NCBI GenBank assembly: GCA_900318115.1
Contig: ONJJ01000010.1
Location: 22,895 to 86,894, forward strand
Length of the DNA: 64,000 bases
DNA from: an uncultured Prevotellaceae bacterium
GTDB lineage: Bacteria; Bacteroidota; Bacteroidia; Bacteroidales; Bacteroidaceae
Reading direction: 5' to 3'
A program made the translations under genes and the position numbers. Of this stretch, positions 5,819 to 62,158 are shown piece after piece. Below the pieces are notes generated by a model. That model had not been told where the DNA came from. It worked only from the letters and a program-made list of their open reading frames with translations, and did not search any database. Numbering within the stretch: position 1 is the stretch's first letter; every line of letters starts with the position of its first letter.

Positions 5819-5994
5819 CTTACGTCCCGACCTACCAGCCAACACGTCCCGACGTACCGCTTCACATCAGGCCATACCGCCTCACACATCAGGCCATACC
5901 GTCTCATACATCAGGCCCTATCGCCTCACACATCAGGCCATACCGCCCTCCACACCCAGCTCTTACGCCCTTCACACCCAGCTCCTCCGCGAGT
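5819..5994. repeat. 22-bp-period tandem array, 8 units
   Basis: Eight contiguous units of exactly 22 bp start at 5819, 5841, 5863, 5885, 5907, 5929, 5951 and 5973. Units 3-6 share ACATCAGGCC.TA.CG. Units 1-2 share ACGTCCCGAC.TACC. Units 7-8 share CACACCCAGCTC. The sequence changes in blocks but the register does not. The period is not a multiple of three and no credible gene overlaps it. It starts 27 bases after the inverted-repeat element. Confidence 0.85.
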
Positions 5995-37264: not shown

Positions 37265-37476
37265 ACAAATCCTCTTGACTTGACACTCGTTTTGCACTTT
37301 TTTCTTGCAGAAAGGGCTCATTTTTATTGTAGATTAAGGTAGAAATGCTCCCAGAATCCCCATTTCTTGTCACAAATGTAAGCAGTACGTCTGGATTTCA
37401 ATGTCAGATTGCCTATTCTCTCGCAATAGCGTTCCAACCTCCATCAACCCTAACCATCCATCCTGATGCAAACTTC

Positions 37477-37539
37477 AGACGCAAGTTGCGTCCGTACAGA
37501 CGCAGCTTGCGTCTGTACGGACGCAGCCTGCGTCTGAAC
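37477..37539. repeat. Three tandem 21-bp palindromic units
   Basis: Units of 21 bp begin at 37477, 37498 and 37519. Each is a near-palindrome GACGCA..TGCGTC separated by GTAC-type spacers (CGTAC, GTACG). They lie at the 5' edge of the AraC remnant and probably interrupt it. Confidence 0.8.
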
Positions 37540-54254: not shown

Positions 54255-54641
54255 ATGGAACTGAACGACCAACTACTGAATGAACTGGCGCAGCGGGCTT
54301 GTGCCTCCGAACGCTTGCGCATGAACTTAGACCTCCGCACCTCCGCGGCCGACCAGTCGCAGCGAATGTTGAATGCTCTGGAACCCGACACCGTGCTGCC
54401 CATCCATCGCCACATGAAGAGCACGGAGGTTGTCGTCGTCCTGCGTGGTCGCATGGACGAAATCTTCTACGATGACCAACGGCGAGAGACGGCTCGCTAT
54501 CACCTCGACCCCAAGCAAGGTGTTTATGGACTCTCCATTCCCGTGGGACAGTGGCACGGAATCGAGGTCTTCGAACCCACCGTCATCCTCGAGTGCAAGG
54601 ATGGAGCCTATGAACCACTCGCTCCTGAAGACGTTCTTTAA
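54255..54641 (+). CDS. WbuC-family cupin-fold metalloprotein
   Basis: 128 residues, a single cupin. Metal-ligand block 1 is LPIHRHMKSTEVVVVLRGR (two His and a Glu), block 2 IPVGQWHGIEVFEP (His). The N-terminal RLRMNLDLRTSAADQSQRMLN is typical of WbuC, a family found near O-antigen and polysaccharide genes. Reaction unknown. It is followed 35 bases later by the fucosidase pseudogene. Confidence 0.85.
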   Translation: MELNDQLLNELAQRACASERLRMNLDLRTSAADQSQRMLNALEPDTVLPIHRHMKSTEVVVVLRGRMDEIFYDDQRRETARYHLDPKQGVYGLSIPVGQWHGIEVFEPTVILECKDGAYEPLAPEDVL

Positions 54642-54676
54642 TCTCATAATTCTAAAATACTGCTTACCAGAAATCT

Positions 54677-55974
54677 ATGAAATACCTTCGTCTGCTTATC
54701 CTCTTCTTGTCTTTCAATTTCCCACTTTCAAATTCCTACTCTCACGCTCAGTACGTTCCCTCGGACGACAATCTGGCAGCCCGTCGGGAGTTCGAAGGCT
54801 TCCGCTTCGGCATCTTTCTCCATTGGGGCATCTACAGCACGTTTGCCCAGTTCGCTTCGATGCCGAGGCGTGGGCACGAGCCTTCAAGGATTCAGGCGCC
54901 CGCTACATCACCTTCACCAGCCGTCACCACGACGGATTCTCGATGTTCCATACGCGCGCGAGTACTTATAATATTGTTGATGCAACGCCCTTCAAACGAG
55001 ATGTCCTCCGCGAGCTTGCCGAGGCATGCCAGCATCAGGGGTTGCGACTGCATCTCTACTACAGCATCCTTGATTGGATGCGAACGGACTATCCCCTCGG
55101 TCGCACTGGGTTGAAGACGGGACGTCAGTCACGACCCGACTACGACAGCTACTTCAACTTCATGAAGACCCAGGTGCGTGAATTGCTGACGGACTACCCG
55201 AAGGTCGAGGGACTCTGGTTCGACGGCTACTGGGATCACGATGGCGACAGCATCCCCTTCGACTGGCGCATGCCGGAGTTCTACCGATATATCCACTCGC
55301 TGAAGCCCGCCTGCCTCATCGGCAACAACCACCACATCACTCCCATCGAGGGTGAGGACTTCCAGATGTTTGAACGCGATCTGCCCGGCGAGAACACGGC
55401 AGGACTCTCTGGACAGGAAATCAGCCATCTGCCCCTGGAGATGTGCCAGACCATGAACGGTATGTGGGGCTACAAGGTGGCCGATCAGAACTATAAATCC
55501 ACCTCCGAACTCATCCGCCTCATCGCCCGCGCTGCCGCCAAGAACAGTAATCTCCTCCTGAATATCGGTCCGCAACCCAACGGCGAACTGCCCGCCACTG
55601 CCCTCGACCGCCTGCAGGGCATCGGGCGCTGGATGCGTAAGAATGGCGAGAGCATCTACGGCACCACCGCCACGTCCTTAGGCGAACAACCCTGGGGCGT
55701 CACCACCCAGAAGGACAACCGCCTCTTCCTCCATGTGTTCGGGGGTGAAGGGGCTAAGGGAACTTCCGGGGTTGATGGGGCTTCCGGCGTTGATGGGACT
55801 TCTGGGGCTGTTATCACGCTCCCTTGGCCTGCGAAGAAGCCTAAGAGCGTGCGTGCACTGAGCACGTCCGTGCCTCTCACATTCTCCTTCGACAAGCGCG
55901 CCAAGGTCCTCACCATCCAGCTCCCTGCCGACCTCGACGAGGCTGACTTTGTGATTGAAGTCCTGAAACAATAA
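54677..55974 (+). pseudogene. GH29 alpha-L-fucosidase broken by a frameshifting deletion
   Basis: The first frame (from ATG 54677) gives a signal peptide and FEGFRFGIFLHWGIYSTFAQ. The second frame resumes with CPVRFDAEAWARAFKDSGAR and runs to TAA 55974, with SRHHDGFSMF, the nucleophile region GLWFDGYWDHDG and GQEISHLPLEMCQTMNGMWG. GH29 enzymes need about 20-25 more residues between STFAQ and RFDAEAW (the EWY loop). So a short block is missing and the frame has shifted at 54842-54850 (TTTGCCCAG). Near the C-terminus a 6-residue repeat (TSGVDGA type, 18 bp) is inserted. The intact enzyme would be secreted and release L-fucose. Confidence 0.85.
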
Positions 55975-55984
55975 TCTTTAGGAA

Positions 55985-56752
55985 ATGAATACACTCGAAG
56001 TATGCTGCGGAAGCCTTGCCTCTGCGGTCGCTGCCGTCGAAGGCGGAGCCCGGCGCATAGAACTCTGCTCGGCGCTCTCGCTGGATGGACTCACACCTTC
56101 CATCGGTCTCATCCGTGAGTTGCGCCACATCTATCCCGACCTGCTCATCCACGTCTTCATCCGTCCTCGTGAAGGCGACTTTGTCTATACCGAGGCGGAG
56201 GTGCGCGTCATGGAACGCGACATCCACGAGGCCGTGGCCGCTGGTGCGTCCGCCATCGTCAGTGGTGCCCTCACGCCCGATGGCGACATCGACGTCAAGA
56301 CCACCCTTCGTCTTCTTCTCGCCTCCGAGGATCTCCCCTTCACCTTCCATCGTGCCTTCGACCAAGTGAGATTTCCTTCGCTCTCACTTCGTCAGCTCGA
56401 AGCAATAGGTGTCCGTCGCATCCTCACCTCTGGCGGAGCCCCCACCGCCGAAGCCGGCATCCCTCAGCTTCGTGCCCTCGTCCAGCTCGCTACCTCAATC
56501 GGTGCGCAGACAACTCCCCTGCCTGGCGGTAGCTATGAAGAAGCAGCAGGGTGTCCTGGCTTGAAGAACTATTCTCGCGAGCACCTGTCCATCCTTCCGG
56601 GAGGCGGCGTCGCCAGCGCCAACGCCCATCGCATCCTTGCCGAAACAGGAGCCACGGAAATCCACGGCTCCTGCTCCCGCCTCCTCCCTGACGGCCTCCG
56701 TCAGACCTCAGCTGACGAAGTCCGTGCCGTCCTCGCCGCCATCGCTTCCTAA
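55985..56752 (+). CDS. cutC: CutC-family protein (copper homeostasis)
   Basis: 255 residues, a TIM barrel. Motifs: MNTLEVCCGSLASAVAAVEGGA, RRIELCSALSLDGLTPS, HVFIRPREGDFVYTE, LPFTFHRAFDQV, RRILTSGGAPTA and ILPGGGVASANA. Its link to copper is historical and debated; recent views favour a broader metabolic role. It starts 10 bases after the fucosidase stop and ends the plus-strand run before the long repeat locus. Confidence 0.92.
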   Translation: MNTLEVCCGSLASAVAAVEGGARRIELCSALSLDGLTPSIGLIRELRHIYPDLLIHVFIRPREGDFVYTEAEVRVMERDIHEAVAAGASAIVSGALTPDGDIDVKTTLRLLLASEDLPFTFHRAFDQVRFPSLSLRQLEAIGVRRILTSGGAPTAEAGIPQLRALVQLATSIGAQTTPLPGGSYEEAAGCPGLKNYSREHLSILPGGGVASANAHRILAETGATEIHGSCSRLLPDGLRQTSADEVRAVLAAIAS

Positions 56753-56866
56753 CCCGTTTTGGTTATCCCTTGACTCTCGACAAGCTATAGTTCATCATCG
56801 TAGCAAATAGTAGTTTGTGATATACGACTCATTTAGTAAGATTGACGTTAAGATTGACGTAAGATT

Positions 56867-56913
56867 GACGTCCAAAAGAACCATGATACGTAGAATTCCA
56901 TGATTCGTCGTCA
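56867..56913. repeat. 47-bp direct repeat, left copy
   Basis: Matches 58013-58059 at 43 of 47 positions in the same orientation (core GAATTCCATGATTCGTCG). The pair brackets the arrays and the AT-rich block, 1.19 kb outer distance. Confidence 0.88.
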
Positions 56914-56950
56914 CTCTGAGCGTCAATCATTAGGTCAATGTAATCGTTCA

Positions 56951-57214
56951 GCCGCGGCCTTATGGTGATTCCGCCGCGGCCTTATGGTGATTCCGCCGCG
57001 GTCTTATGATGGCTCCGTCGCGGCCTTATGATGGCTCGAGCGTGACCTTATGATCATTCCACCATGGCCGAATGATAATTCCACCGTGGCCGAATGATGA
57101 TTCCACCATGGCCGAATGATTATTCCATCGTGGTCTTATGATGGTTCGATGGCGATGGAACAATGGTTCCATCACCATTGAACAATGGTTCCATCGCCAT
57201 GGTACAACGAAAAC
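56951..57214. repeat. 22-bp-period tandem array, 12 units in block mosaic
   Basis: Units of exactly 22 bp start at 56951 and every 22 bases to 57193. Units 1-5 share CG.GGCCTTATG, units 6-8 share ACC.TGGCCGAATGAT, unit 9 returns to the first type, and units 10-12 share ATGG-AACAATGG-type sequence, the last one decayed. Many units centre on CCGCGG or CCATGG and are imperfect palindromes. Confidence 0.9.
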
Positions 57215-57245
57215 GTAAGCCTTCGATTTCTAACAGGCCCTGATA

Positions 57246-57355
57246 GTTCGTCGGTTTCGCCTTGGAAGTTCGTCGGTTTCGCTTTGGCAGGCAGTCTCTT
57301 CCGTCTTATCAGGCAGTCTCTTCCGTCTTGCCAGGCAGTCTCTTCCGTCTTGGCC
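57246..57355. repeat. 22-bp-period tandem array, 5 units of two types
   Basis: Units start at 57246, 57268, 57290, 57312 and 57334, each exactly 22 bp. The first two share GTTCGTCGGTTTCGC, the last three GGCAGTCTCTTCCGTCTT. The period is the same as in the arrays at 5819 and 56951 but the sequence is unrelated. Confidence 0.9.
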
Positions 57356-57435
57356 GGCCGAGTCCAAGAGCATAGAGAGAAGGATTTTTGGATTTGTCCA
57401 AAGTTTTTATTGTATTATAAAATTGTTGTAAAATC

Positions 57436-57877
57436 ACAGCACTTTAGCACTTTTGTGGCTTAATACGCTGAACATAAGCGCCTTAAAAGAGTGCTTTTAT
57501 GGTGCTTTATGAGTGCTAAAGTGCTTTTTTGCATCAGAAAGTGACGTTTTCCTGCATTTGCGCCACTTTTTTAAGTAGGTGAACGAAATTAGTTATTAAA
57601 GCGAAACTTGAGTTAAATAATTTTGTTTACCTACTTATCTATAATTGCCTACTAAATCGCCTCCTTTACTATTTAAACGGTCTCTTCTGTCTATCTATGT
57701 TGCTTTATACCTTGATGATTTTGTTATAAATCCGATGCCCTTTTGATACATTTTTGAGCGGATTTGTGTCCATTCTCTGCTTAACACAGCACTTTAGCAC
57801 TCATAAAGCACTCATAAAGCACCATTTCATATCGTTGATTATCAATGAAAAACTATAGAAAAGTGCTAAAGTGCTGT
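57436..57877. repeat. AT-rich block with nested inverted repeats of AGCACTTTAGCACT
   Basis: AGCACTTTAGCACT at 57438-57451 and 57788-57801 faces its reverse complement at 57512-57525 and 57862-57875. Extra half-copies (CATAAAGCAC / GTGCTTTATG) flank the inner pair. Two hairpins, or one large cruciform, are possible. About 250 unrelated AT-rich bases lie between. Confidence 0.85.
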
Positions 57878-58012
57878 TGTTTTATAGTGAATTTTTATTT
57901 CGGTAAAAAAGTATGACAGGTACAAGGCAGCGTGATAAACGAATTATTTATTGAGATTGAAGTAAGGATTGACGATGATTCTTGAAGGGTCAAGCGTAGT
58001 TAGCGCCGAGCG

Positions 58013-58059
58013 GACGTCCAAGAGAACCATGATACACTGAATTCCATGATTCGTCGTCA
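58013..58059. repeat. 47-bp direct repeat, right copy
   Basis: Same orientation as 56867-56913; followed by CGTCAATC-type repeats to about 58095. Confidence 0.88.
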
Positions 58060-58167
58060 ATCATCGTCAATTTGAACCTCAATCGTCGTTAATCGATATA
58101 TCCATATGCTATAGTTGTTCTCGTATTCTTTATTCTTGAAGTCCTATAGAATGGCCAACATCTAGTC

Positions 58168-61100
58168 CTACTGTACTGAACGAATGGGCAAACCAAAATA
58201 TTTTTCATATTCTATAATTGTTTTATCCTTAAAACATTTTGCTTTTTTAGAACTCCCATTATTCGCAGTCCAATACATACATGAACCTAAATATACAGCG
58301 CTAGTTTCTTTCCTACCAGCAGATGGGAGGAAAATATGATTCCCATTTTTTCCTTCAATGAAGTATCCGACAACTCCGTTGTAAGTGGATTCTCTCCAAG
58401 TGCAATAAGTAATGAGTTCTTCAAAGTCAGCTGCAGTTGGAATTCTTCCTTTTCCAGCCATAAATGCTGCATCATAGTCAGTTCCAGCAATACTGCTACT
58501 TAAATCTTTATTCGAATGCTTATAATTATATTCGTTGAAATTGGATTTTGTAGTAGTCTCTCCCCAAGCATAATATGTTCCTCTAGATGAAGGATTTTCT
58601 GCTCCGATATTTTGAGAAGCCCATTTAGTTCCTGATGGCAGACCGAGGTCAATAAAACCAAGTGGTAATTCTACCTCCTTTGTTTGAAACTCTCTAGTGT
58701 CGCTGACAATGGTTTGTTCTTCAATAATTGCTACAAATCTATAATAATAAGTCGTATAACTTGACAAGCCATATAGTTTGGCAGAAAGGGAACTTCCGTT
58801 TACTGAAACGCTAGCTGTTCCAGGAAGCGAAAAGTCTTTCTTTTGTGAATAATTGACGGAATACTTTATCGTGGAATTTCCTTTGTATATTGATGTTATC
58901 GTGGAACTGCCATTAATTGTGGCAGAATTCACAGTAATATCGGAAGCCTCTCCAGCTAAGATGTGGTCTGTTCCAGCTAAGGTTTTGAAACTTTTTACTT
59001 CACCGCTATATTCTATGCCATTCAACTCTGTAAAACAATAATAATAGTAGGTCTGGTTAATAAGAAGATTTGTAATGACTGCCGATAAGCTATTATTATT
59101 CAATGTGGCTGTCGCTGTTTTCGCGTTAGAGAAGTTTTGATTAGGCGAATATTTAATAGCGAATTTAAGCGTTTTGGAAAGCTCAACGGAGAACGAAGTT
59201 GTCCCATTAATCTTTGCTGTAGTGAGCGTGATGTCAGAAGCATCATTTGTTTGAATACCTCCTTCAGCTTTTAGTGTCTTGAAATTCTTAATCCTGCCAA
59301 TAATTTCAGAACCTTCAACCTTTGCCATGCAGCAATAATAGTATGTTGTATTTAAAGAGAGTCCAGAAAGTGATGCAAATAGTTGGTTCCCTTCAATTTT
59401 CGCTGGAATGGAATTAGAGGTCTTCATATTTTGATCTGTCGAATACTTTATAAAGTACTCAATGGCATTTGGATTGGAGGTGAGGGCGGGCAATGTGGTA
59501 CTTCCAGCAATATCTGCGGTGGTGAAAGTTATATTCGAAGCATTTCCTGTTTCAATAGCTCCTTCTGCCGATAGTGTCTTAAAACTCTTTATGTCTCCAT
59601 AAAACTCTGCGCCACCGGCATTCGCGAAACAACAATAAAAGTAGGTTGTATTAATGGCCAGTCCTGTGAGAGTCGTTTCCAACTTTATTTTATCCAAAGG
59701 TGCTGTAATAGAACTTGCAGTCTTTACATTTTCTTTGTTTGTGGAATATTGAACTCTATAGCTGATAGCATCAGCAGGATATAAAGAAGAAAGACTGCTT
59801 ATAGCGTGAATCTTGGCTGTCGTCAGAGTTATGTTTCCAGCATCGCCGGTTGAGAAATAGTCCGCGTCGCCTTTTGTTATAAAAGACTTGACTTCTCCCC
59901 TAATTTCTAATCTGTCAATTATCGCAGCTATGCAATAGTAATATGTGGTTTCTTTTGAAAGATCAGATATTTCAGCCTGTAAATTATTTCCGGCCTTCAC
60001 GCATTGTTTTGTTAGGATTGATGTCATATTCTGGTATTTAGAGTAATATATATAGTATGTTATTGAAGATTGGTAAAGGCTCTCTAAATTTCCCTTCCCA
60101 TTAACTACAGCAGTTGTTGTCGTAACATCGGTTGCATCTTCTGTTTTCAGGTAATCGGTCTTCCTATAGGTCGAGAATGATTTCAGTTGACTGTAAATAG
60201 TTTGGCCTGTTTTCATAGTCATGGCTAAACAATAATAGTACGTTGTGTTGTCTTGCAGATGATCAATGTCGGTTTGAATTTGAATTTTATTGTTCTCTAC
60301 TTTAAAAGTCGCATTGATTCGATTTGATGAAGAGGTAACGTTTGAATTATCTTTGGAGATGTGGAATGCAAAGTGTGTGTCATCGCCACAATTCTTATTG
60401 ACTGTAGCTGTCAGCTTTGCGGAATTCAAAGTGATATTCGTAGCATCAAGTTTTTCGATAGACGAATCAATAGCCTGAGTCGTAAAACTCATTATCTCTC
60501 CCACAAGGTGAGTTCCATCAATATTGGCCTCAACACAATAATAATAGGTAGTATTGTCTTTCAAATTATTTATTGAAGCTACTAGAGAATTACCATTCTG
60601 ACTTGGGGATACGGAAGCATAGTTGCTGGAATAATAAGATTCTTGGGTTAACGAATTTTTATTCGTAGAATATCGAAAATTGTAGCTAATCTGTTTCGTT
60701 CCATTTTTATAAACGTTGGATAAATTTGTCGTTCCATTTAATGTTGCAGAATTGAATGTTATTTCAGTTGCAGGTTTAGTTATCAGCACATTATCGGTGG
60801 AACTGGTAGTGAACATTTTTACCTGTCCTTTCAAGGTCGTGTTGTCTATTGTCGCATAGACGCAATAATAATAAGTACTATTAGGTTGTAGTTCTTTTAT
60901 TTCGGCTGTCAAAACATTACCCTTTACCACTGCATCAATCGTTTTAATTCCACTCCAATAATTATTGCCATTTATTAAATCGTCTTCGTTTGATGAGTAT
61001 AGAAAACCTTGGCGTATGGTATAATTAAGTGGGTATAGATTAACAATTTCACTAATACCATTAAGAGTGGCAGAGGTCAAGGTGATGTCAGTAGCTTCAC

Positions 61101-61854
61101 CTGTAATTAGGCCTGAATCAATATCTCTTGTACTAAAACTTTTTATCTGCCCGGTTTTGTATTTTTTTCCCATCTTCATGTAAGAACAATAGTAATAAGT
61201 AGTACTATTTTGTAGGTCGGTCAAATTGATGGAATAGAGTTCGTCTTTTACGTTATTAATAGGACACTCTCGTAGACTTGTGTATTTAATGCTGTCAGGC
61301 ACCAATTTGCTTTTAATTTTAGAATATGCGAAGCCTATTGTAAAATTTTCTTCTTCATCGACAGAGCCTATATTAGCGATACCATTTAATGTGACTGAGG
61401 TAAAAGTCAGGTTCGTTGCGTCACTGGTTGATGTAACATTATTAAAATCTTTTGTGTTAAAAGAACGAATTTCACCATTGTATACAATATCATTCAACTT
61501 TACATAAGTCCTATAATAGTATTTTGTATTAGCTGTAAGCGTATCTACATGAACAGTAAGTTTGTTGCCTGTTAATTCCTTGGTGGTTGCCCGACCAGAG
61601 AACTTTAAATCTTCATTCATAGAGAATTCTACACCAATCTCTTGTTTGCTATAATTTGCAGTTATTAAATTGAGGTTTACGTACCCGTCAATTGTAGCGA
61701 AGGAGACACCGACCTTTGTGGGATTACTTGTTACGGCAACGTCAGTAGTGTTATGGCTGCCATCATTGACTAATGCATCATCTCCACTGCAAGAAGTCGA
61801 ACAAACCAAAAGAATGATGTAACCCAAGATGTTTAATAAAGTTCCGTTTTTCAT
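58168..61854 (-). CDS. Giant lipoprotein with ten fibronectin-III-like repeats and a Fib_succ_major-type C-terminal domain
   Basis: 1228 residues from ATG 61854; the lipobox is CSTSCSG (Cys 22). Ten tandem ~85-100-residue modules follow, each with an ITLTSATLNG-like start, a YSxN strand, and an NTTYYYC..KSFxT end. The last ~150 residues (GFIDLGLPSGTKWASQNIGA, YYAWGETTTKSNFNEYNY, FLPSAGRK) match the Fibrobacter-succinogenes-major paralogous domain found in Bacteroidota surface proteins. It is markedly more AT-rich than the core genes, which suggests acquisition by transfer. A surface adhesin or matrix-binding role is inferred. The leader contains nested inverted repeats. Confidence 0.85.
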   Translation of the reverse strand: MKNGTLLNILGYIILLVCSTSCSGDDALVNDGSHNTTDVAVTSNPTKVGVSFATIDGYVNLNLITANYSKQEIGVEFSMNEDLKFSGRATTKELTGNKLTVHVDTLTANTKYYYRTYVKLNDIVYNGEIRSFNTKDFNNVTSTSDATNLTFTSVTLNGIANIGSVDEEENFTIGFAYSKIKSKLVPDSIKYTSLRECPINNVKDELYSINLTDLQNSTTYYYCSYMKMGKKYKTGQIKSFSTRDIDSGLITGEATDITLTSATLNGISEIVNLYPLNYTIRQGFLYSSNEDDLINGNNYWSGIKTIDAVVKGNVLTAEIKELQPNSTYYYCVYATIDNTTLKGQVKMFTTSSTDNVLITKPATEITFNSATLNGTTNLSNVYKNGTKQISYNFRYSTNKNSLTQESYYSSNYASVSPSQNGNSLVASINNLKDNTTYYYCVEANIDGTHLVGEIMSFTTQAIDSSIEKLDATNITLNSAKLTATVNKNCGDDTHFAFHISKDNSNVTSSSNRINATFKVENNKIQIQTDIDHLQDNTTYYYCLAMTMKTGQTIYSQLKSFSTYRKTDYLKTEDATDVTTTTAVVNGKGNLESLYQSSITYYIYYSKYQNMTSILTKQCVKAGNNLQAEISDLSKETTYYYCIAAIIDRLEIRGEVKSFITKGDADYFSTGDAGNITLTTAKIHAISSLSSLYPADAISYRVQYSTNKENVKTASSITAPLDKIKLETTLTGLAINTTYFYCCFANAGGAEFYGDIKSFKTLSAEGAIETGNASNITFTTADIAGSTTLPALTSNPNAIEYFIKYSTDQNMKTSNSIPAKIEGNQLFASLSGLSLNTTYYYCCMAKVEGSEIIGRIKNFKTLKAEGGIQTNDASDITLTTAKINGTTSFSVELSKTLKFAIKYSPNQNFSNAKTATATLNNNSLSAVITNLLINQTYYYYCFTELNGIEYSGEVKSFKTLAGTDHILAGEASDITVNSATINGSSTITSIYKGNSTIKYSVNYSQKKDFSLPGTASVSVNGSSLSAKLYGLSSYTTYYYRFVAIIEEQTIVSDTREFQTKEVELPLGFIDLGLPSGTKWASQNIGAENPSSRGTYYAWGETTTKSNFNEYNYKHSNKDLSSSIAGTDYDAAFMAGKGRIPTAADFEELITYCTWRESTYNGVVGYFIEGKNGNHIFLPSAGRKETSAVYLGSCMYWTANNGSSKKAKCFKDKTIIEYEKYFGLPIRSVQ

Positions 61855-62158
61855 ATTGAATTCTATTTGCGACAGGGCAAAAAGAAAGGTGTGAAACCAC
61901 TCTGTTGTCATCTCGAGGTATCGGCAAACACCTATGTACATACAACAATGAAGCTCACACCTAACGGCGAGAGCATTCACTTTTACTGCTGATGTACATC
62001 TTGTTAATTTGCCGATTTTCGAGATGCATCAAGTAGAAGCAAACACTTCCTTTATGTCTATGTCTAGTTAAACGTTAATTATCTAAATCATTGTTGGTTA
62101 TTGAGGGTTAAACATATTGATTGCAATACTTTATCACATTATAAAATCTGATTTTGCA
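61855..62158. other. AT-rich leader of the giant lipoprotein gene with nested inverted repeats
   Basis: AGGTGTGA (61887-61894) faces TCACACCT (61955-61962). An outer imperfect pair, CATCTCGA..ATCGGCAAA..ATGTACAT (61909-61940), faces its complement at 61992-62026. These could form a structured 5' leader. No clear TAnnTTTG promoter was found. The remaining bases to 62158 hold nothing recognisable. Confidence 0.5.

What the first reader, a model, noticed from the sequence alone, without database searches (positions are those of the whole stretch)
56951..57355. Block-mosaic arrays with an invariant 22-bp period
Seventeen contiguous units of exactly 22 bp lie in two runs (12 + 5). Unit sequence changes in blocks (CGCGGCCTTATG type, CCATGGCCGAATGAT type, GGAACAATGG type, TTCGTCGGTTTCGC type, GCAGTCTCTTCCGTC type), yet the register never slips within a run. 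Simple slippage gives homogeneous repeats; here period is conserved and sequence is not. 22 bp is close to two helical turns, many units are imperfect palindromes, and it is not a coding period. This looks like an array built or read by a length-measuring mechanism (a nucleoid or partition protein, or a duplication machinery). I know of no described element of this kind.
Basis: partly seen in the sequence, partly recalled or inferred. Interest (0 to 1): 0.8.

Follow-up and report, generated by a model that had tools for sequence, protein, structure and literature searches.

The report
Minisatellites locked to 22-bp units
A stretch of repeats between two genes belongs to a whole class of non-coding repeats in related Bacteroidales bacteria whose unit is mostly exactly 22 base pairs whatever its sequence, which hints at an unknown protein or process that measures DNA length.

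Summary
The array is real and slightly longer than stated: lag-22 similarity runs over 56947-57358, two runs in one register, no slip. It is non-coding, between cutC and a convergent gene. In sampled non-coding DNA, leaving out stretches chosen because of a match, repeats pile up at exactly 22 bp: own genome 10 segments (21 bp: 2; 23 bp: 1), 15 genomes of its genus 34 (2; 2), 10 genomes of other genera 6 (2; 0). Unit sequences differ widely. In 18 genomes of other Bacteroidales families there was one, plus three at 23 bp. Units often hold an imperfect palindrome. Some families are dispersed elements, organised like the 23-nt BrickBuilt element of Porphyromonas gingivalis; two tested arrays are single-locus. 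The same array in a related rumen genome aligns over 258 bp at 80% identity without a gap. Tests for covariation, wobble asymmetry, gene orientation and a shared motif were negative or weak, so I favour a DNA-level cause: a lineage-specific DNA-binding protein or recombinase with a 22-bp ruler. That step is inferred. I rate it a new variant of a known kind; the length lock across dissimilar sequences is the new point.

The parts
56951..57214 (.). run 1: twelve 22-bp units (four CCGCGGCCTTATG-type, one transitional, three CCATGGCCGAATGAT-type, one transitional, three of GATGGAACAATGGTTCC type)
   Evidence: rows of 22, lag identities; TRF
57215..57236 (.). one diverged 22-bp row that keeps the register; lies in the stretch best conserved against RUG11694 (21 of 22 in the row from 57205, 18 of 22 in the row from 57227)
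57237..57358 (.). run 2: five 22-bp units (TTCGTCGGTTTCGC x2, GCAGTCTCTTCCGTC x3) plus a partial one
57199..57209 (+). ATGGTACAACG: differs by one base from ATGGAACAACG, the right end of most dispersed copies of the GGTTCCATGGCGATGGAACAAT family
   Evidence: (L004, L006, L206-L209 printed side by side)
56867..56916 (+). repeat to the left of the array; second copy at 58013-58062 (90%); 56879-56928 aligns with RUG11694 at 86%
57395..57531 (+). AGCACTTTAGCACT hairpin module; related copies on contigs C38, C62, C28 and C20, the first two and the last a few hundred bases from arrays of the window family
57788..57884 (-). second (inverted) copy of part of the AGCACTTTAGCACT module
5863..5990 (.). 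another 22-bp array in the window (nearly six units, CACATCAGGCCATACCGCCTCA), no second match in this genome
2182..2259 (.). another 22-bp array with a dyad, inside a predicted ORF
55985..56752 (+). cutC (PF03932), upstream neighbour; anchors the orthologous array in RUG11694

Best explanation
The array is one of several dozen to more than a hundred non-coding minisatellites per genome (extrapolated) in this clade whose unit is 22 bp whatever its sequence. Shown: the sharp 22-bp line; widely differing unit sequences; imperfect dyads of about 16-18 bp inside many units; gain or loss of whole units at the ends of the one orthologous pair compared; some families dispersed. Inferred: new copies arise by ordinary local tandem duplication, and copies in a 22-bp register are amplified or kept because a lineage-specific DNA-binding protein, either a nucleoid-type protein or the transposase/recombinase that moves the dispersed forms, binds side by side with a 22-bp footprint and reads dyad and spacing more than exact sequence.
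For: Sharp line at lag 22 in non-coding DNA. All sampled stretches: own genome 15 (21:3, 23:1), 16 genus genomes 39 (21:2, 23:2), other genera of the family 6 (21:2, 23:0). Without the window and stretches chosen because of a match: own 10 (2, 1), 15 genus genomes 34 (2, 2), family 6 (2, 0). TRF gives 58 of 143 non-coding arrays at 22, 11 at 21, 4 at 23. 51 arrays of two or more units reduce to 39 by profile similarity, from 18 genomes, 10 of them from this genome. The lock is lineage-specific: one lag-22 segment in 112 kb of non-coding DNA from 18 genomes of other Bacteroidales families, three at 23 bp; none in 200 kb of E. coli K-12. As far as I know slippage alone would not pick 22 over 21 or 23 in one family only. 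Dyads: 23 of 58 against 7 of 35. Among lags 18-26 the share of 22 rises from 6 of 14 repeats under 2.1 copies to 52 of 66 with more, p=0.01 (counts, test), which fits selective amplification or retention. The orthologous array in RUG11694 aligns gap-free over 258 bp at 80% identity, with about 3.5 more units here on the left and three on the right. One dispersed family has about 40 places in genome G018 by my count of the list (65 candidates, 40 scored).
Against: No protein was identified and no stable shared motif was found: after removal of similar arrays the information gain over column shuffles is small (z near 3.9 at three widths) and the consensus changes with width. The 39 are not all unrelated: they include the window array and its RUG11694 orthologue. 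Within arrays, changes in dyad arms are not compensatory (47 extra pair types, 56.2 expected). 22-bp arrays are not poorer in indels than other arrays. Lag 22 is already raised under 2.1 copies (6, against 1 or 2 at each of seven neighbouring lags), which also fits a birth mechanism. At p<=0.05, 35 of 58 arrays show no dyad. Five of ten genomes of other genera had no lag-22 segment in up to 40 kb each, and a sixth gave only 1 kb.
Confidence: 0.42

Rival explanations
1. Common descent: the arrays are relics of one old dispersed BrickBuilt-like element family with a 22-bp unit. The period is inherited, whole-unit slippage preserves it, and substitutions have erased sequence similarity. No ruler acts today.
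For: Some families are dispersed with conserved ends or flanks. Most blocks of the window array share unit edges and look like diverged copies. The profile filter left at least one pair that is known to be orthologous, so relatedness can escape it. A 23-nt counterpart exists in P. gingivalis (PMC4596501).
Against: Widely differing unit sequences. Two long own-genome arrays tested have no second match in the genome. Indels occur in these arrays at about a tenth of the mismatches under the usual TRF penalties (1.26% against 12.7%; the ratio depends on the penalties), so an inherited period should have spread to 21 and 23 by the time that sequence similarity is lost.
Confidence: 0.3
2. A duplication machine with a fixed step of 22 bp (a nicking recombinase, transposase or repair process) makes new copies; the resulting DNA has no function.
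For: The line is sharp to one base pair. Lag 22 is already raised among repeats under 2.1 copies, 6 of 14 for lags 18-26. No gene-orientation preference.
Against: The share of 22 rises with copy number. Dyads would be unexplained unless they are the enzyme's target.
Confidence: 0.2
3. RNA-level elements: tandem hairpins in transcripts (terminators, 3' ends, sRNA).
For: The array folds better than shuffles as RNA (z -3.6, 1 of 100 shuffles as good), and the region with the AGCAC modules far better (z -11.6).
Against: No terminator-like site in 56700-58200. No Rfam match over threshold at the array or in eight loci with arrays other than a 5S rRNA and a tRNA. No G.U against A.C asymmetry on the sense strand in co-directional gaps (22 against 19; on the arbitrary plus strand of all 40 arrays used it is 90 against 56). 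No compensatory change. Gene context close to what intergenic length predicts: convergent 13, co-directional 21, divergent 12 of 46 placed arrays, null 23/53/24% (8 edge and 4 coding arrays left out).
Confidence: 0.08

Closest known systems
BrickBuilt minisatellite/MITE of Porphyromonas gingivalis (PMC4596501)
   Same: Intergenic, imperfect tandem units without spacers, dispersed copies with leader and tail, predicted stem-loops, Bacteroidales
   Different: Unit 23 nt, one family in P. gingivalis and P. gulae, terminal repeats like those of IS5-family elements. Here the unit is 22 bp, many sequence families, and no such terminal repeat near the array
22-, 23- and 41-nt direct repeats of P. gingivalis W83 (mentioned in PMC4596501 section 7; the original paper was not seen)
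   Same: Fixed-length tandem repeats in a Bacteroidales genome
   Different: Only mentioned; the passage that I read reports no lock over many families or genomes
REP/BIME palindromic elements with RAYT transposases (recalled)
   Same: Short dispersed intergenic palindromes
   Different: Recalled as not strict 22-bp head-to-tail arrays. Y1 transposase genes occur in 46 of 60 genomes of the order, mostly from families in which I saw no 22-bp line
Iterons, and the 22-bp transposase sites at Tn7/Mu ends (recalled, no call)
   Same: About 22-bp protein-binding sites repeated in register
   Different: Recalled as one conserved site sequence per replicon or element next to its own gene; here sequence differs from array to array

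Membership tests
BrickBuilt | 23-nt unit | tested here: not met
   22 bp in the window array
BrickBuilt | intergenic tandem units without spacers | tested here: met
   one row (57215-57236) is diverged beyond recognition
BrickBuilt | leader and tail flanking the array in dispersed copies | tested here: inconclusive
   Seen in most of the eight G018 copies printed. For the window family, dispersed copies share the array ends and, at some loci, the AGCAC module, but not one constant leader
BrickBuilt | terminal inverted repeat GAGACCTTTGCA-like | tested here: not met
   no match with up to 2 mismatches near the array; 5 in the window, 6.35 expected by chance
CRISPR array | identical repeats with unique spacers | tested here: not met
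   units contiguous, no constant repeat
protein repeat | open frame through the array | tested here: not met
   3 to 7 stops in each of six frames of 56951-57358; one of six frames of the RUG11694 array has none
structured RNA | compensatory changes in paired arms | tested here: not met
   47 against 56.2 in shuffles, 47 arrays; no Rfam match over threshold at the array
plasmid or phage iteron | similar arrays on plasmids or phages | tested here: not met
   no match of the window array in either collection at E<=1e-5
protein-bound phased array | a protein that needs 22-bp spacing | not testable with these tools
   needs binding experiments

The most novel reading that the evidence does not exclude
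This family of Bacteroidales carries a molecular ruler, a DNA-binding protein or recombinase with a 22-bp step, that creates or maintains dozens to over a hundred non-coding arrays per genome almost independently of their sequence; other families may use another step (23 bp), so the step is an evolved property of the protein.
Probability: 0.33. Interest if true: 0.85.

Novelty: new variant of a known kind. Interest (0 to 1): 0.6.

Why it matters
Tandem repeats are usually explained by slippage, which is not known to prefer one unit length to the base pair over many dissimilar sequences. A 22-bp lock across a bacterial family says that something reads length, or that one old element left a far larger imprint than recognised. 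If it is a protein, it is an unknown and abundant chromosome-organising or DNA-mobilising factor. The claim is cheap to test in complete genomes and in Prevotella or Bacteroides laboratory strains.

Tried and rejected
Coding repeat: rejected. RNA hairpins and terminators: not supported by covariation, wobble asymmetry, gene context, Rfam and terminator scans. Shared protein-binding motif: a consensus TTnCAaCgTG seen did not hold after removal of similar arrays. Special indel resistance of 22-bp arrays: not supported (15 of 55 arrays of period 22 and 11 of 29 of other periods have some indel; with penalties 2,7,7 the shares are 3.33% and 3.80%). An earlier TRF run with a lax indel penalty inflates indels in all classes and was not used. 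Inverted repeats just outside array ends as a general rule: not supported (mean 4.56, null 4.32, sd 0.15; 50 of 58 arrays had enough flank). RAYT/IS200 as the driver: distribution does not match. A second orthologous array: a 3.5-kb stretch around the L103 array had no DNA match in RUG11694. The 23-bp line in G157: two segments in its first 40 kb, none in 60 kb more, nor in 20 kb more of G020, so a 23-bp lock in other families is only a hint.

Sampling and method caveats. My stretches of the own genome stop short of the other known copies of the window family. Stretches of G018 lie on contigs chosen because they carry copies, and three of its five arrays are such copies; the stretch L192 of G055 holds the orthologue itself; the window was chosen by the finding. 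One search recounts without these. Counts are segments; merged, all stretches give 58 arrays (12 own, 40 genus, 6 family), and without the chosen stretches 7, 34 and 6. Low-complexity repeats were filtered before counting. Gene calls are my own codon-usage ORF calls; a few lag-22 segments fall in called ORFs (1 own, 3 genus). In one search, six duplicate loci were dropped by hand. The family name Bacteroidaceae is inferred from record titles ('Bacteroidaceae bacterium') of two contigs whose lengths equal those of genus members; kinship of the named Prevotella genomes to the window was not told.

Full report
What is there. Between cutC (55985-56752, PF03932) and a convergent gene for a large protein with fn3-like and phosphatase-N-type domains (58168-61980, minus strand) lies 1.4 kb of repeat-rich non-coding DNA. 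Its first part, 56947-57358, is a 22-bp array in one register: twelve units, one diverged row, five units and a partial one. Identity at lag 22 is 0.73, at 44 0.61, at 66 0.53, the fall expected of units copied locally and then diverged. The blocks are variants with a common edge in most units (TTCC or TTTC, then purine-pyrimidine-C). Nothing like it appears in shuffled windows (score 114 against at most 13.5 in 20 shuffles). No frame is open through it, and no Rfam family reaches its threshold there.

It is one of a class. I measured self-similarity at every lag from 10 to 60 in non-coding DNA, by my own gene calls. In all sampled stretches, lag 22 gives 15 segments in the own genome (454 kb; 3 at 21, 1 at 23), 39 in 16 genomes of the genus (797 kb; 2, 2) and 6 in ten genomes of other genera of the family (359 kb; 2, 0); repeats inside called genes sit mostly at multiples of three. 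Without the window and the stretches chosen because of a match, the counts are 10 (390 kb; 2, 1), 34 in 15 genomes (660 kb; 2, 2) and 6 (2, 0). TRF with usual penalties agrees: 58 of 143 non-coding arrays at 22, 11 at 21, 5 at 20, 4 at 23. In 18 genomes from 18 other Bacteroidales families (634 kb, 112 kb non-coding) there is one segment at 22, two at 21 and three at 23, the latter in two genomes; 80 kb more from those two genomes gave neither 22 nor 23. 200 kb of E. coli K-12 gave five segments, none at 22. Among named genomes, Prevotella bivia shows two lag-22 repeats and no other lag from 12 to 60 in 40 kb, and P. falsenii one array. Extrapolated from the unchosen stretches, the own genome holds about sixty arrays (7 in 390 kb of 3.33 Mb) and genus members more (34 in 660 kb).

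Different sequences, one length. Of 51 arrays with at least two units, 39 remain after removal of those with similar profiles, from 18 genomes, ten of them from the own genome. The filter is coarse: it kept both the window array and its RUG11694 orthologue. Two long own-genome arrays, window 5863-5990 and the one in L103, have no second match in the genome. Other families are dispersed. Five copies of the GGTTCCATGGCGATGGAACAAT family in this genome and in RUG11694 begin with CGTTGTTCCATGG, and four of the five end with ATGGAACAACG (the fifth with ATGGAACAACA). A family in G018 has about 40 places (my count of the list; 65 candidates, 40 scored), with three to four units at the 17 loci looked at, several of them the same place fetched twice; junction dyads there are 22 bp apart except for one extra match at 18 bp in L016. 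Most of the eight copies printed have common flanks on both sides. That is the layout of BrickBuilt, the 23-nt minisatellite of P. gingivalis (PMC4596501: abstract, sections 5 and 8, part 1 of section 7 read), whose terminal repeat is not found near the window array.

Palindromes. 23 of 58 lag-22 arrays have a dyad at p<=0.05 against column-shuffled versions, and 7 of 35 arrays of other periods (one-sided Fisher p 0.04); at p<=0.25 the sets do not differ (34 of 58, 18 of 35). Averaged over 47 arrays, complementarity is high at the second to eighth pair from the centre and low at the centre and the rim, so the dyad covers about 16-18 of 22 bp. Within arrays the arms do not change together (47 extra pair types, 56.2 in shuffles), and there is no G.U excess on the sense strand in co-directional gaps (22 against 19). 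Array positions follow intergenic length without a clear preference for convergent or divergent gaps. These results speak against RNA hairpins and for a DNA-level cause, although the array as RNA does fold better than shuffles (z -3.6), as tandem palindromes must.

Evolution. The orthologous array behind cutC in RUG11694 aligns with the window array over 258 bp, 80% identity, no gap, including the diverged row. This genome has about 3.5 more units on the left and three more on the right. Of the flanks only a 50-bp piece on the left aligns. However, over all arrays the indel share is the same for 22-bp and other periods, so gap-freeness of one array is not the key point; the choice of 22 is. 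Among lags 18-26 the share of 22 grows from 6 of 14 repeats under 2.1 copies to 52 of 66 longer ones (p 0.01). That suggests that copies in this register are amplified or kept, though 22 is already raised in the short class.

Interpretation. Slippage or unequal exchange explains block mosaics and whole-unit changes. It does not explain one exact length over dissimilar sequences in one bacterial family. Either an old element with this unit spread and decayed (common descent), or a machine duplicates 22-bp steps, or a protein with a 22-bp footprint keeps arrays in register. I favour the last (0.42), chiefly because descent without a force should have spread to 21 and 23 at the observed indel rate. 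This is inference; no protein is shown. Papers: two were opened (PMC4596501 in the parts named; PMC5771137 in six passages). Ten searches of the open-access library listed no report of a 22-bp lock; some lists were cut to the top 10 to 20, and subscription journals are mostly not covered.

Noticed in passing
window 57395-57531 and 57788-57884: Inverted AGCACTTTAGCACT modules; the region 57380-57900 folds very strongly (z -11.6). Related copies lie a few hundred bases from arrays of the window family on contigs C38, C62 and C20, and another is on C28.
   Followed up: partly
window 56831-56916 and 57942-58062: Direct repeat (50 bp, 90%) on both sides of the array region; the neighbouring GATTGACG-rich stretches have partial copies on several other contigs.
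   Followed up: no
window 54430-55974: Alpha-L-fucosidase gene (Pfam match from profile position 91) whose likely start lies in another frame (ORF 54677-55114), so it looks broken or mis-assembled; described only.
   Followed up: no
L220 8230-8298 and 9646-9751; L140 163-231: 23-bp arrays in two genomes of other Bacteroidales families, with palindrome-like units by eye.
   Followed up: partly
window 37476-37536: 21-bp array with a strong palindrome (CAGACGCAGCCTGCGTCTGTA), one of few 21-bp arrays.
   Followed up: no
L117 183-282: 22-bp dyad array about 50 bp after a 5S rRNA gene.
   Followed up: no
L055 5742-5815: A 22-bp array of quite different sequence also lies directly behind cutC in a roe-deer rumen genome (RGIG4948).
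   Followed up: no
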